Shown piece after piece: positions 44,974 to 48,833 of a stretch of DNA of 64,000 nt. The notes beneath the pieces were generated by a model. That model did not search any database. It worked only from the letters and a program-made list of their open reading frames with translations, and was not told where the DNA came from. Positions within the stretch are counted from its first letter, which is position 1. Each line of letters opens with the position of its first letter. Origin of the DNA: Streptomyces sp. Ag109_O5-1 (GTDB lineage: Bacteria > Actinomycetota > Actinomycetes > Streptomycetales > Streptomycetaceae); the NCBI RefSeq assembly GCF_003814875.1, contig NZ_RKQF01000001.1:4030001-4094000 (forward strand), written 5' to 3'. The position numbers were made by a program, and so were the translations under genes.

Positions 44974-45456
44974 TCACGCGGTCGGCGGTGCTCCGACCGT
45001 TTCCCGCAGCCACGCGTTGTCGCGCAGCTCCGGATGGGCGGTGGTGATCAGCCGGAACGCTTCGGCCTTCGCCCGGTCGGTGAGCTGCCACAGCTCGGCC
45101 CAGGTCAGCTCGGCCGCACCCGGCGCGTAGTTCGTCGTCAGGGTGACGGCGTCCGATCCACGGCTGAGCGAGAACACATGCTGGGTCACGCTTGTCTCCA
45201 CCGCGATGTCACTCCGGGTCTCCAGCTCTGTTCTCGCGTACTCCAGCATCAGAGCGAAGTCGGCCACGGGCAGTCCCGGCGTGCGCAGGCTGAGATCCAC
45301 GCCGTGGACGCCGAGCCGGACGTCTGCCAGGAAGCAGCTCATGGAGAAGTCCGCGCCGGTCAGCTCCGGGTGCTCCGGGCGGTCCGGGTTGACCGGTCGC
45401 CACTCCGGGGACCAGAAGACGTCCTCGGCGCGGGGCTCGAAGGCGAAAGTGATCAT
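44974..45456 (-). CDS. Hypothetical protein
   Basis: A 160-residue soluble protein starting MITFAFEPRAEDVFWSPEWR. No domain, signal peptide or membrane segment is recognised. Composition is acidic with a Trp/Leu-rich end (LTWAELWQLTDRAKAEAF). It lies between pyk and the surface-protein module without sharing an operon with either. The function cannot be assigned. Confidence 0.7.
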   Translation of the reverse strand: MITFAFEPRAEDVFWSPEWRPVNPDRPEHPELTGADFSMSCFLADVRLGVHGVDLSLRTPGLPVADFALMLEYARTELETRSDIAVETSVTQHVFSLSRGSDAVTLTTNYAPGAAELTWAELWQLTDRAKAEAFRLITTAHPELRDNAWLRETVGAPPTA

Positions 45457-45566: not shown

Positions 45567-46934
45567 TCAGCTGGTTCCGTCGGTCGTGTAGACGTGCATC
45601 CCGGGTACGTGCAGGGTGCCGCCGAACTGCGCTGCCTGGACGACCTTCACGTTGGTGAAGTAGATCAGGGGGATGTTCAGCGGCGGCGGGTTGTCCGGGC
45701 TGAACGTGATCGGGATCAGGCCGAAGAGGTTCCCGGAGATGGACTCCGTGTACATCGTCGTGGCGCCACCGGTGATCGTCGACGTCGAACCGTTGGCCGC
45801 CTGCACGTGGTAGGTCTTGCCGATGGTCGTGTCCTTGACCGTCTGGTGCAGGTTGCCGATGTCGGTGCCACCCGAGATGACGTACTTCAGCACCTTCTTC
45901 TTCGCACCGCTGGCCGTCTTCACCTCGACCACACCCTGGTAGTCGGCACTCTTCAGCGTGAGTGAGCTGGCGCTGAGGTACCAGGGGTTGTCCGCCACCG
46001 CCTCCTTGTTGTCGACGCCGCTCACGTCGTCGGTGGCGGCCTCACAGCCGTCGGCCGAGGTGGTGGAACTAGCGGACGGGCTCGGCGAGGCGCTGGAGGT
46101 GGCGTCGGCAGCCGCCTTGGTCGCCGTGCCGGTGGTGTCCTTCACGGTGTCCGTGACCGCCTTGGTGGCCTTGGAGACCGTGTCCTTGACGGTGTCGGAG
46201 GCGGTGCTGCCGTCATCCTTGCTCGACGACTTGTCCGAAGTGGACGAAGTGGACGAAGAGGAAGAAGAGGACGACGACGAGTCCGACGACGCGGAGGCCG
46301 ACGGCGACGGCGTCGCGCTCGCCGTGGAGTCCGACGAGCCGCTCGTCGTACCGCCGCTGAGGATGCCGGTGATCGCGTCCCCGATCGTCTCCAGCAGGTT
46401 GCCGCCGCTGCTCGCGGAGGCGGACGGCGACGGGGTCGCCGTGCTGCCGGAGCCGGACGAGCCCGACGAACCGGATGAACCCGACGAGTCCGAGGACGAC
46501 GACTTGGACGCGGACGGCGTCGGCGTGGCCGTGTCGCCGGAACCTGAATCCGACGAGGACGACTTGCCCGACGACGTCGAGTGCTTCGTCGCGTCGGCCG
46601 ACGCCGTGGCGGACGGCGTGGCCGAGGACGTGGAGTCGTCGCTCGCGCTCGCGGAGGGCGAGGCGGAGTCCAGGGCGGAGACGCAGTTCTTGTACTCGTC
46701 GGCCTTCTGGCTGTTCGACGTCGACGACGTGTTGTTGGTGTCGGCGATCGCGAGCGTCGAAGTGAACCCGAAGCCCACGAGCACGGCCGTCGGCATCGCC
46801 ACGGAGGCGATCGCCTTGCCCGCCGGCATGTGGAACCTGGTGAACAGCGGCCTCTTGGGTGCCGCATGGCGCGGCCCGGTTCTCACACGGGACTCGTCCA
46901 CATCAGTCCCGTGGGTCACCTCGTCAGCCGGCAC
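45567..46934 (-). CDS. Ser/Asp-rich secreted protein of the DUF6230/DUF6114 module
   Basis: A 455-residue protein. A hydrophobic segment (ASVAMPTAVLVGFGFTSTLA) after a basic stretch is the export signal. Residues of about 65-315 are a low-complexity Ser/Thr/Ala/Asp stalk with repeats such as SASASDDSTSS and long Ser runs. The C-terminal 140 residues are folded-looking (YLSASSLTLKSADYQGVVEV ... GGTLHVPGMHVYTTDG) and unassigned. The stalk suggests exposure on the cell surface. GTG 46934 has GGGAGG upstream and overlaps the DUF6114 gene by 11 bp. Confidence 0.85.
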   Translation of the reverse strand: MPADEVTHGTDVDESRVRTGPRHAAPKRPLFTRFHMPAGKAIASVAMPTAVLVGFGFTSTLAIADTNNTSSTSNSQKADEYKNCVSALDSASPSASASDDSTSSATPSATASADATKHSTSSGKSSSSDSGSGDTATPTPSASKSSSSDSSGSSGSSGSSGSGSTATPSPSASASSGGNLLETIGDAITGILSGGTTSGSSDSTASATPSPSASASSDSSSSSSSSSSTSSTSDKSSSKDDGSTASDTVKDTVSKATKAVTDTVKDTTGTATKAAADATSSASPSPSASSTTSADGCEAATDDVSGVDNKEAVADNPWYLSASSLTLKSADYQGVVEVKTASGAKKKVLKYVISGGTDIGNLHQTVKDTTIGKTYHVQAANGSTSTITGGATTMYTESISGNLFGLIPITFSPDNPPPLNIPLIYFTNVKVVQAAQFGGTLHVPGMHVYTTDGTS

Positions 46935-47475
46935 TGTGCCTCCCGTTCGCCCCGTTCACCGGGCTTGTTCCTGACAGGTCGTTCGAGTCGGCCACGCCGT
47001 CCGAACCCGCGAAGTACGTGTCCTCGTCCGGGGTGTCGTCCCCCGCGGGCGGCACATCGCCCTCCGGCTGCGGCTGCTTGGGCGCACCCGGCCCCCAGGC
47101 CACGGCCATCGCTCCGCCGATCAGGGCGAGCAGGAAGCCCAGGACGAAGCCCCCGAAGTTGGACACGGGCAGGGACACCAGCGCGAGCAGGATCGCGGCG
47201 ACACCCGCGAAGGTGCGGATGTGCTTCTGGAACCAGAGGCTGATGCCCAGGACGACGAGCAGCACGCCGATGATCAGGGACCCGGCACCGGCGGTGGTGG
47301 CCATGGCCACCGTGAGGTTGCCGATCTGGAGGTGCGCGTACGGGAAGTACATGATCGGAAAACCGGCGAGCAGGATGTACAGACCGGCCCAGAACGGCCG
47401 CGTGCCCCGCCAGGAGCGGAACTGCAGCCTCCGGCGGGTGAACTGACCGGGTGCGGCAGGAGTCTCGGCGCTCAT
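46924..47475 (-). CDS. DUF6114 integral membrane protein
   Basis: A 183-residue membrane protein with four hydrophobic segments (RPFWAGLYILLAGFPIMYF, TAGAGSLIIGVLLVVLG, TFAGVAAILLALVSLPV, FVLGFLLALIGGAMAVAWG) and an acidic tail. It matches the DUF6114 family as I remember it, found next to DUF6230 proteins. Function unknown. It overlaps the downstream Ser-rich protein gene. Confidence 0.85.
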   Translation of the reverse strand: MSAETPAAPGQFTRRRLQFRSWRGTRPFWAGLYILLAGFPIMYFPYAHLQIGNLTVAMATTAGAGSLIIGVLLVVLGISLWFQKHIRTFAGVAAILLALVSLPVSNFGGFVLGFLLALIGGAMAVAWGPGAPKQPQPEGDVPPAGDDTPDEDTYFAGSDGVADSNDLSGTSPVNGANGRHSAG

Positions 47476-47573
47476 GGAAAACAGCTCCCTGGTGCGGCGT
47501 TGCTGTGGTGGTGATGCTGTGTGGTGCGGTGATGGTGCGTTGTACCGCGTGTGAAGACCGTGGGAAGAAGGTG

Positions 47574-47613
47574 GACGGGCGGGGGTGCCGTCGGCTCCCC
47601 CGCCCCGCCCGTC
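47574..47613 (-). terminator. Terminator after DUF6230 gene
   Basis: An 11-bp perfect stem (47574-47584 with 47603-47613) on the minus strand is followed by a pyrimidine run. It lies between the DUF6230 and DUF6114 genes and may only partly stop transcription, since the two belong to one module. Confidence 0.65.
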
Positions 47614-47622
47614 ACGGAGTGC

Positions 47623-48270
47623 TTAGTAGCACTCCGCACCCTTCGTCGAGATCGACATGTGCAGACCGCTCAGCTTGAAGGTTCCGGCGGTGGTCGCCCA
47701 CGCCGTCTGCTTCACGCCGGACAGGGAGGCGTGGTCGGCCTCCTGCGCGAACCCGTTCGGGTTCGTCTGCTTGTTGGCGACCTCGTCCGACTTGATGCCC
47801 GGACCCTTGGTCGAGCTGCCGGCCGCGACACCGATGTTGATGTTGGTGAACGTCGCGTCGGCGCTCAGGTCGTCGAGGTCGATGTACAGCTTGCTGGCCT
47901 CGACCGGCTTGCTGCTGTCGGTGCCCGCGTGCAGGATCAGGCTGACGTTGCCGAAGATCGGAACGTTCGGGGTGACCACGGACTGGCACAGGTTGGTGAT
48001 CTTCGCCGTGTTGAACGCCGAGACCGCCACCGGGTGGATCGTCTTGTCACCGGCGAGGGTGACGCCCGAGTCGACGGCACCGTACTGGACGAAGCCGTCA
48101 CCCTCGAGCTGGTCGGCCGTGACCTTGAACTGCTGGCCCGACACGCTGAACGACGCGGCGAGAGCGCCCTGCGCGAGGGCGACACCTATCGCGGCCGTAG
48201 CGGCGACGCTGGGCACCATGACCACAGCGAAGCGCTTCCATCTGGTCCCGCCACGCACCTGGGACTCCAT
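47623..48270 (-). CDS. DUF6230 secreted protein
   Basis: A 215-residue protein with one hydrophobic segment near the N-terminus (FAVVMVPSVAATAAIGVALA) and an all-beta-looking exported part (SFSVSGQQFKVTADQLEG). It fits DUF6230; some Streptomyces members were once labelled cholesterol esterase, but I see no Ser-hydrolase motif to support that. ATG 48270 has the perfect ribosome site AGAAGGAGG. It is the first gene of a module with DUF6114 and the Ser-rich protein. Confidence 0.85.
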   Translation of the reverse strand: MESQVRGGTRWKRFAVVMVPSVAATAAIGVALAQGALAASFSVSGQQFKVTADQLEGDGFVQYGAVDSGVTLAGDKTIHPVAVSAFNTAKITNLCQSVVTPNVPIFGNVSLILHAGTDSSKPVEASKLYIDLDDLSADATFTNINIGVAAGSSTKGPGIKSDEVANKQTNPNGFAQEADHASLSGVKQTAWATTAGTFKLSGLHMSISTKGAECY

Positions 48271-48645: not shown

Positions 48646-48663
48646 CGTTACTGGGTAGTAACG
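48646..48663. promoter_or_regulatory. 18-bp palindrome CGTTAC-N6-GTAACG
   Basis: A perfect 6-6-6 inverted repeat lies about 375 bp upstream of the DUF6230 gene within a 622-bp gene-free stretch (48271-48892). It contains TTACT-N4-AGTAA, related to the palindrome at 48778. The rest of the stretch holds no convincing gene; short ORFs in it lack ribosome sites and conserved features. Confidence 0.5.
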
Positions 48664-48777: not shown

Positions 48778-48833
48778 TTACTCCGAGTAACAGCGGCCGC
48801 GATTACCAAGATTTGGTAAAGAGCGACCGCTGT
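48778..48833. promoter_or_regulatory. Clustered palindromes: TTACT-N3-AGTAA and a 44-bp nested inverted repeat
   Basis: TTACTCCGAGTAA (48778-48790) is followed by a nested dyad. The outer arms 48790-48800 and 48823-48833 pair with one mismatch; the inner TTACCAA-GAT-TTGGTAA (48803-48819) is perfect. The dyad lies 60 bp after the thioredoxin/TPR gene and about 520 bp before DUF6230. It could be a terminator or a complex operator. Confidence 0.5.

What the first reader, a model, noticed from the sequence alone, without database searches (positions are those of the whole stretch)
45567..48270. Uncharacterised surface module: DUF6230, DUF6114 and a Ser/Asp-rich stalk protein
Three linked genes encode an anchored beta protein, a four-helix membrane protein and an exported protein with a stalk of about 250 low-complexity residues topped by a conserved domain. 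The architecture suggests an assembled cell-surface structure in a mycelial organism, with no known function.
Basis: inference. Interest (0 to 1): 0.5.

Follow-up and report, generated by a model that had tools for sequence, protein, structure and literature searches.

The report
Fatty-acid-linked surface lipid-handling module
Three neighbouring genes of an antibiotic-producing soil bacterium encode secreted and membrane proteins that look switched on together with the fat-burning genes, so they may catch or handle fatty or oily molecules at the cell surface; this is predicted from sequence and not yet tested.

Summary
In detail: three linked genes (DUF6230, DUF6114, stalk protein) lie on the minus strand of a 12-Mb Streptomyces-type genome. 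The pair is nearly inseparable (113 of 116 DUF6230 hits in 60 genomes), and the triad is in 80 of 80 close loci. In other families DUF6114 and the stalk-tip protein are one polypeptide (28 of 36 tip-bearing loci). The tip domain is a distant relative of DUF6230. The "stalk" is bracketed by two conserved cysteines and carries an amphipathic motif plus an 11/3 amphipathic helix. The strongest functional evidence is regulatory: palindromes TTACT-N3/4-AGTAA sit upstream in 74 and 76 of 80 orthologues; in five genomes the same rare palindrome also marks acyl-CoA ligase, acyl-CoA dehydrogenase and fabG/thiolase promoters (6 of 15 other sites). Published data agree: SCO5420 (orthologue by synteny) rose about 37-fold on Tween 40, and probable Geobacillus relatives are alkane-induced. 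Best reading: a fatty-acid-responsive envelope module that handles long-chain lipids. "Cholesterol esterase" looks wrong. Uptake itself is inferred. A held-out gene-neighbourhood test did not replicate (3 of 20 vs 1 of 20), and no solved fold matched.

The parts
47623..48270 (-). DUF6230 protein, 215 aa, signal peptide plus beta domain, invariant Cys95 and Cys214
   Evidence: PF19741 198.6 bits; both Cys invariant in 70 aligned sequences; AlphaFold2 mostly beta, pLDDT 68, pTM 0.64
47573..47610 (-). GC-rich hairpin just after the DUF6230 stop codon, without a U-tract; possible partial terminator or mRNA stabiliser
   Evidence: 80 loci: mean MFE of the first 60 nt -35.8, against -26.6 kcal/mol for mononucleotide shuffles of 40 of them; RNAalifold on 28 sequences: 14 pairs, 3 with changes on both sides
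46924..47475 (-). DUF6114 multi-helix membrane protein, 183 aa
   Evidence: PF19609 121 bits; 11-bp overlap with the next gene in 80 of 80 loci
45567..46934 (-). Stalk/tip protein, 455 aa (GTG start), one N-terminal hydrophobic segment (residues 39-64)
   Evidence: present in 80 of 80 loci; hydropathy; no library hit at E<=1
46047..46682 (-). Stalk between Cys84 and Cys297, rich in Ser, Ala, Thr, Asp, Gly
   Evidence: Cys pair in 81 of 81, length 192-263 aa
46359..46397 (-). Conserved 13-residue amphipathic motif LLETIGDAITGIL inside the variable stalk
   Evidence: pattern in 75 of 81 sequences; same type seen in two fused proteins of family f8, L127 and L144
46113..46211 (-). 11/3-periodic amphipathic helix segment in the second half of the stalk
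   Evidence: this 33-residue window is the best one; test against whole-region shuffles: 78 of 81 at p<=0.01, first 90 aa of the stalk 0 of 81; highest mean moment at 98.2 degrees among ten angles tried on 40 sequences
45570..45989 (-). Tip domain, a distant DUF6230-like beta domain
   Evidence: AlphaFold2 pLDDT 90, pTM 0.83; hhalign to DUF6230 probability 87%, score 40.1 against at most 19.8 in 100 column shuffles
48648..48661 (.). Operator-like palindrome TTACT-N4-AGTAA
   Evidence: 76 of 80 upstream regions, 0 in one shuffle of each; genome search
48778..48790 (.). Operator-like palindrome TTACT-N3-AGTAA
   Evidence: 74 of 80 upstream regions, 0 in one shuffle of each
48803..48819 (.). Second palindrome type, TTACCAAGATTTGGTAA
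   Evidence: TTACC-N3-8-GGTAA in 63 of 80 upstream regions; regulator unknown

Best explanation
A fatty-acid-responsive cell-envelope module that handles long-chain lipids. Shown by computation: the three genes travel together; DUF6114 and the stalk-tip protein are one protein in other families; the tip domain and DUF6230 are distant homologues; the operon carries conserved palindromes that also mark fatty-acid activation and beta-oxidation genes. Inferred: DUF6230 is secreted after signal cleavage; the tip domain is held at the membrane through DUF6114; the amphipathic helix on the arm and the two beta domains bind long-chain fatty acids or other hydrophobic molecules at the surface; DUF6114 passes them into or along the membrane, where acyl-CoA ligases induced by the same signal trap them. 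A TetR-type repressor that releases DNA when acyl-CoA is present would switch on the module together with fadD/fadE/fadA; its identity is inferred (candidate: the TetR beside fabG/fadA).
For: Operators: TTACTN3AGTAA in 74 and TTACTN4AGTAA in 76 of 80 upstream regions, 0 in one shuffle of each. In five genomes that I picked there are 24 sites against 2 for the reversed pattern. Nine lie at the DUF6230 operon and 15 elsewhere, of which 6 are at fatty-acid genes: fabG/thiolase three times, acyl-CoA ligase twice, acyl-CoA dehydrogenase once (Pfam, for one fabG/thiolase pair, both ligases and the dehydrogenase; the other two pairs read from sequence). In family f88 (L165) genes that read as acyl-CoA ligase, thiolase and fabG, a TetR and an acyl-CoA dehydrogenase (these two Pfam-confirmed) and the DUF6114-tip and DUF6230 genes lie in one stretch with an exact operator. 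One-mismatch sites lie upstream of DUF6230 in L141, L151, L163 and L227. Expression: SCO5420 rose almost 37-fold on Tween 40 vs glucose (PMC7494193, passages). Relatives: alkane-inducible Geobacillus membrane proteins P21/P16 (PMC2676291, passages and one section); the P21 N-terminal peptide matches DUF6230 proteins of L123/L171 (10 of 17) and L212 (11 of 17) above all 500 shuffles. Neighbourhoods: AlkB-like gene with rubredoxin, beta-oxidation genes, OleABCD-like genes, KshA. Assembly: fusion. Helix.
Against: The frozen neighbourhood test failed on held-out loci: 3 of 20 vs 1 of 20 controls, p=0.30, and two of the three are P450 genes only. The earlier 27 of 54 vs 3 of 40 used queries picked from those same neighbourhoods and related genomes. 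Nine of the 15 non-module operator sites are not at fatty-acid enzymes (TetR/exported pair 4, LLM oxidoreductase 3, NYN protein 2), and G006 has only the module's own site. No operator within one mismatch at the three paralogous copies in the same genome, nor in the loci of the other class or of most other families. The window itself has no beta-oxidation gene beside the module. Palmitic acid did not induce P21/P16; over the full length their similarity to the S. lavendulae enzyme was negligible; P21-N does not beat shuffles against the Streptomyces copies, and three internal peptides match nothing. The haloarchaeal locus shows no DUF6114. No fold match at E<=0.001. The searches made found no transport, binding or mutant data.
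Confidence: 0.55

Rival explanations
1. Tolerance or export: the module protects the envelope against free fatty acids and hydrocarbons, or moves home-made lipids outwards, rather than importing them.
For: OleA/B/C/D-like long-chain olefin biosynthesis genes lie beside DUF6230 in three genera; P21/P16 were proposed for uptake, tolerance or degradation; the same operator logic would fit detoxification.
Against: The fatty-acid genes that share the operator are activation and breakdown genes, and the reported inductions are by external lipid.
Confidence: 0.25
2. Secreted cholesterol esterase or lipase, as the old annotation says; the gene product would cut Tween or sterol esters.
For: Annotated so in S. 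coelicolor, S. venezuelae and SirexAA-E; similarity of P21/P16 N-termini to an S. lavendulae cholesterol esterase is stated in PMC2676291.
Against: GxSxG in only 9 of 166 family members; the best His column reaches 63% and the next 30%; P21/P16 were judged by their authors not to be cholesterol esterases.
Confidence: 0.05
3. Surface structure for adhesion or aerial growth.
For: Exported protein with a long Ser/Asp-rich arm; DUF6230 in 58 of 60 genomes of the order.
Against: DUF6230 also occurs in a class with about 3-Mb genomes and on a haloarchaeal plasmid; regulation points to fatty acids; no cell-wall sorting motif is visible at the C-terminus.
Confidence: 0.1

Closest known systems
Pfam DUF6230 (PF19741) and DUF6114 (PF19609)
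   Same: Both window proteins are clear members, in the usual gene order.
   Different: Both families are listed as of unknown function; here they gain a third partner, a fusion, and a regulatory link.
Alkane-inducible membrane proteins P21/P16 of Geobacillus thermoleovorans B23 (PMC2676291, passages and section 8)
   Same: About 200-aa exported proteins; the post-signal motif of P21 matches the DUF6230 proteins of L123 and L212.
   Different: Induced by alkanes and not by palmitate; no DUF6114 or tip partner is described in what I read; the match to the window copy itself is not above shuffles.
Streptomyces 'cholesterol esterase' (Nishimura and Sugiyama 1994; paper not seen, known from a reference list)
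   Same: Probable source (inference) of the label that DUF6230 proteins carry.
   Different: No conserved hydrolase motif in the family.
FadL and Mce lipid-uptake systems (recalled)
   Same: Proposed job: bring hydrophobic molecules to the membrane of lipid-eating bacteria.
   Different: No match to such families for any of the three proteins.
11-mer amphipathic helices of apolipoproteins, alpha-synuclein, perilipins or LEA proteins (recalled)
   Same: 11/3 periodicity with a hydrophobic face.
   Different: No Pfam match at E<=1 for the window protein; lipid binding untested.

Membership tests
DUF6230 (PF19741) | Score over the curated cut-off of 27.5 bits | tested here: met
   198.6 bits
DUF6114 (PF19609) | Score over the curated cut-off of 27.9 bits | tested here: met
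   121.1 bits
DUF6230 superfamily (tip domain) | Direct Pfam match | tested here: not met
   No hit for P0001 at E<=1
DUF6230 superfamily (tip domain) | Profile-profile similarity over the whole domain | tested here: met
   Broad profiles: hhalign probability 87.4%, E 3.6e-6 for one comparison; reversed and shuffled controls score at most 19.8 vs 40.1. With narrow alignments only 1.1%
Serine-hydrolase type cholesterol esterase | Conserved GxSxG and catalytic His | tested here: not met
   GxSxG in 9 of 166; no His column above 63%
Geobacillus P21/P16 alkane-inducible proteins | Post-signal motif like AFPLSGVGGFTISADLI | tested here: inconclusive
   Met for DUF6230 of L123, L124, L170, L171, L212; not above shuffles for the window copy; C-terminal peptide just above shuffles for L123, L124, L212
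Geobacillus P21/P16 alkane-inducible proteins | Induction by long-chain alkane | not testable with these tools
   Needs cultures
Fatty-acid catabolism regulon (TTACT-N3/4-AGTAA) | Operator conserved upstream | tested here: met
   74 and 76 of 80 upstream regions
Fatty-acid catabolism regulon (TTACT-N3/4-AGTAA) | Bound and regulated by one regulator | not testable with these tools
   Needs binding assay and mutant
Known solved folds | Structural match to a solved protein | tested here: inconclusive
   No Foldseek match at E<=0.001; best Z 2.7 and 3.3; the DUF6230 model is of moderate quality

The most novel reading that the evidence does not exclude
DUF6230, DUF6114 and the DUF6230-like tip form a previously unrecognised long-chain-lipid uptake apparatus of Gram-positive actinobacteria, with relatives of DUF6230 in Bacillota and haloarchaea. 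It would do the job that FadL or Mce systems do elsewhere, using two homologous beta domains and an apolipoprotein-like amphipathic arm on a small membrane hub, under direct control of the fatty-acid breakdown regulator.
Probability: 0.35. Interest if true: 0.8.

Novelty: new variant of a known kind. Interest (0 to 1): 0.6.

Why it matters
How Streptomyces and other Gram-positive actinobacteria bring long-chain fatty acids and hydrocarbons through the wall to the membrane is, to my knowledge (recalled), not settled. DUF6230 is in 58 of 60 genomes of the order sampled, and the module now has a testable job, candidate operators, a candidate regulator and a published 37-fold response to Tween. 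It would also correct a misleading 'cholesterol esterase' label, and it offers a handle on lipid feeding in antibiotic producers.

Tried and rejected
Fold searches: no usable match for either model. Solved-structure sequence searches: nothing credible. Profile comparison with narrow alignments gave only 1.1%; it became strong only with broad ones. The neighbourhood enrichment looked strong (27 of 54 vs 3 of 40) but used queries chosen from those loci; with queries frozen, 20 held-out loci gave 3 vs 1 of 20 (four of the 20 stretches, L216, L220, L225 and L226, are shortened by contig ends or by my request, L225 to 3 kb). OleABCD-like genes found there were noticed afterwards and are not counted. 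Response-regulator, kinase and ABC-F neighbours recur in control regions too and were dropped as signals. First helix test picked its own best window; replaced by a whole-region shuffle. A first motif pattern found 0 of 81 because I had written it wrongly; the mended pattern gave 75 of 81 and was fitted to sequences already seen. No sigma-70-like promoter in the stretch. Four joined P21 peptides found nothing in plasmids. The S. coelicolor glycoproteome main text names none of SCO5420-5422 (term search of the main text). 'SCO5420 = DUF6230' rests on its label and on its place between trxA SCO5419 (recalled) and pyk2 SCO5423, matched by synteny in L093, L049 and L055; SACTE_4612 and SVEN_0933 were not checked. 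Literature searches for DUF6230 and DUF6114 found one and no papers; SCO5421/5422 none. One of the 81 upstream regions was dropped for lack of sequence, by its coordinates L033, leaving 80.
Full report
WHAT IS THERE. The window lies at 4,030,001-4,094,000 of the main contig of a 12-Mb genome. On the minus strand lie DUF6230 (47623-48270), DUF6114 (46924-47475) and a 455-aa stalk/tip protein (45567-46934). Upstream are a thioredoxin-like gene, a TetR gene and a mutase gene; downstream, on the other strand, are genes that read as phosphotransacetylase, acetate kinase and pyruvate kinase (names of these neighbours by inspection, no library run). The same order is seen in the three named Streptomyces loci that I gene-called.

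LINKAGE. A scan of named genomes kept the best 80 loci; all 80 carry all three genes in order, with an 11-bp overlap of DUF6114 and the stalk gene in 80 of 80. In a wider sample of 60 genomes of the order, 58 have DUF6230, 58 DUF6114 and 55 the tip domain. From their coordinates, 113 of 116 DUF6230 hits have DUF6114 just downstream on the same strand, 115 of 116 DUF6114 hits have DUF6230 within 1.5 kb, and 59 of 61 tip hits have both within 3 kb. 57 of the 116 DUF6230 copies have no tip hit nearby, so the pair is the core and the tip an addition. The window's own genome has four pairs, three with a tip.

FUSION. Outside the window's family, DUF6114 and the tip often form one open frame: DUF6114, linker, a further hydrophobic segment, a Pro/Ser/Glu-rich arm, then the tip with its TPDFPPPLLLP-type motif. 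In 75 loci from diverse genomes 36 carry the tip, and in 28 of these it is fused to DUF6114. In that sample seven families (f1, f3, f8, f10, f77, f86, f88) have the tip. This is the best evidence that the two proteins act as one unit.

DOMAINS. The tip was predicted with high confidence (pLDDT 90, pTM 0.83), DUF6230 with moderate confidence (68, 0.64); the first is all beta, the second mostly. Neither matched a solved structure at E<=0.001; best Z were 2.7 and 3.3. Broad profiles (166 DUF6230 and 116 tip sequences) align over the whole tip: probability 87%, E 3.6e-6 for the one comparison, score 40.1. Reversed profiles scored 14.7 and 17.1, and 100 column shuffles at most 19.8. I take the tip as a distant DUF6230-like domain.

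STALK. In all 81 sequences (window and 80 loci) two cysteines bracket the stalk, 192-263 aa apart; many open frames show further cysteines upstream, where in most the mechanical start codon lies too far out. If the two pair, the arm is a closed loop and not a mast; this is inference. A 13-residue amphipathic motif sits mid-stalk in 75 of 81. The part after it has an 11/3-periodic hydrophobic face: 78 of 81 beat whole-region shuffles at p<=0.01, with the highest mean moment at 98.2 degrees among ten angles tried on 40 sequences; the first 90 residues give 0 of 81. Such helices often bind lipid surfaces in other proteins (recalled), but they also occur in dehydration proteins. No such Cys pair is seen in the fused proteins of L141, L163 and L165.

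NOT AN ESTERASE. Annotations call DUF6230 proteins cholesterol esterase. Among 166 members, GxSxG occurs in 9 and the best-kept His column reaches 63%. One Cys column is kept in 95%; with the second invariant Cys of the close set this suggests a structural disulphide.

REGULATION. Upstream of DUF6230 are palindromes TTACT-N4-AGTAA (48648-48661), TTACT-N3-AGTAA (48778-48790) and TTACCAAGATTTGGTAA (48803-48819). In 80 upstream regions (window plus 79 loci) these types occur in 76, 74 and 63, at fixed places and, for the first two, with variable centres; none in one mononucleotide shuffle of each region. The exact pattern TTACTN3-4AGTAA has 5, 6, 1, 6 and 6 sites in five genomes that I picked, against 1, 0, 1, 0, 0 for the reversed pattern. 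Of these 24 sites, 9 are at the module. The other 15 are: fabG/thiolase divergent promoter 3, acyl-CoA ligase 2, acyl-CoA dehydrogenase 1, TetR with an exported protein 4, LLM oxidoreductase 3, NYN protein 2. Pfam confirmed one fabG/thiolase pair with its neighbours, both ligases and the dehydrogenase; the rest are read from sequence. In family f88 (L165) genes that read as ligase, thiolase and fabG, a Pfam-confirmed TetR and acyl-CoA dehydrogenase, and the DUF6114-tip and DUF6230 genes lie together with an exact site; its TetR is 47% identical to the TetR beside fabG/fadA in G001. With one mismatch allowed, sites lie upstream of DUF6230 in L141, L151, L163 and L227 (in L163 some 380 bases upstream); 60 control regions hold two such sites in 1.19 Mb, the 74 test loci other than the window 12 in 1.34 Mb, not all of them near DUF6230. 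The three paralogous copies in the window's genome have none.

PUBLISHED DATA. In S. coelicolor, 'cholesterol esterase' SCO5420 rose almost 37-fold on Tween 40 vs glucose (PMC7494193, passages); one comparison, sampled once in mid-exponential phase. SCO5420 as the DUF6230 gene is inferred from label and place. In Geobacillus thermoleovorans, membrane proteins P21 and P16 rise with alkanes, more with longer chains, and not with palmitic acid; their mature N-termini were sequenced (PMC2676291, passages and section 8). The P21 N-terminal peptide matches DUF6230 proteins of L123/L171 at 10 of 17 and of the haloarchaeal L212 at 11 of 17 residues, at the expected place after the signal peptide, above all 500 shuffles, but not the Streptomyces copies. 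Its C-terminal peptide is just above 300 shuffles for L123, L124 and L212; three internal peptides match nothing. The authors found full-length similarity to the S. lavendulae enzyme negligible.

NEIGHBOURHOODS. Elsewhere the pair lies beside an AlkB-like gene (Pfam: fatty-acid desaturase family) with rubredoxin (L155 by Pfam, L130 by clustering), beta-oxidation genes (L123, L124, L170, L171), a fatty-acid desaturase (L122), KshA (L011) and, in family f86, a GMC gene that resembles cholesterol oxidase below its cut-off, with FMO and AurF genes; DUF6230 without DUF6114 lies near acyl-CoA dehydrogenase and ligase genes on a haloarchaeal plasmid. Counted with 13 queries, 27 of 54 loci vs 3 of 40 controls had such a gene within 7 kb, but the queries came from these loci and the genomes are related. 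With queries frozen, 20 new loci of one order gave 3 vs 1 of 20 (p=0.30). I therefore give this line little weight. In the same new loci OleA/B/C/D-like genes adjoin DUF6230 in two, and in one earlier locus.

TAXONOMIC RANGE. DUF6230 was found in 84 of 394 genomes of the class, 19 of 296 of the phylum and 6 of 39 of another class.

VERDICT. A real, conserved module whose control and company point to fatty-acid or long-chain-lipid metabolism. That it belongs to a fatty-acid regulon is likely (about 0.8, my estimate); that it imports lipid is a reasonable but untested step.

Noticed in passing
L122, L130, L155, L156 and one locus of family f82 (L157 or L158): A type I signal peptidase gene near DUF6230/DUF6114 in five families and none of its cluster in 60 control regions; L122, L130, L155 and L156 carry tandem DUF6230/DUF6114 arrays.
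   Followed up: partly
L140 4949-9615; L220 6578-11447; L228 10547-15130: OleA/B/C/D-like genes for long-chain olefins next to DUF6230 in three genera; the OleC-type ligase is over the cut-off of NF006754 in L220 and L228, OleD below its cut-off in L220; L140 by clustering only.
   Followed up: partly
L212 8917-11404: Haloarchaeal plasmid with a DUF6230 gene followed by an open frame that weakly matches the apolipoprotein family (E 1.1e-9, below its cut-off).
   Followed up: partly
48803-48819: Second palindrome type TTACCAAA[TA]CTTGGTAA conserved upstream of the module; regulator unknown.
   Followed up: no
L271 5100; L272 4832; L273 4887; L274 4955: The same operator type lies between a TetR gene and an exported protein gene in four genomes (read from sequence).
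   Followed up: no
44974-45456: 160-aa gene between the tip gene and pyruvate kinase with no Pfam match over cut-off; not called there in L093, L049 or L055.
   Followed up: no
L133 8465-9154: Exported 229-aa protein of unknown kind right after DUF6114 where the tip would be; relatives near DUF6230 in four genera of f86, their exact place not checked.
   Followed up: no
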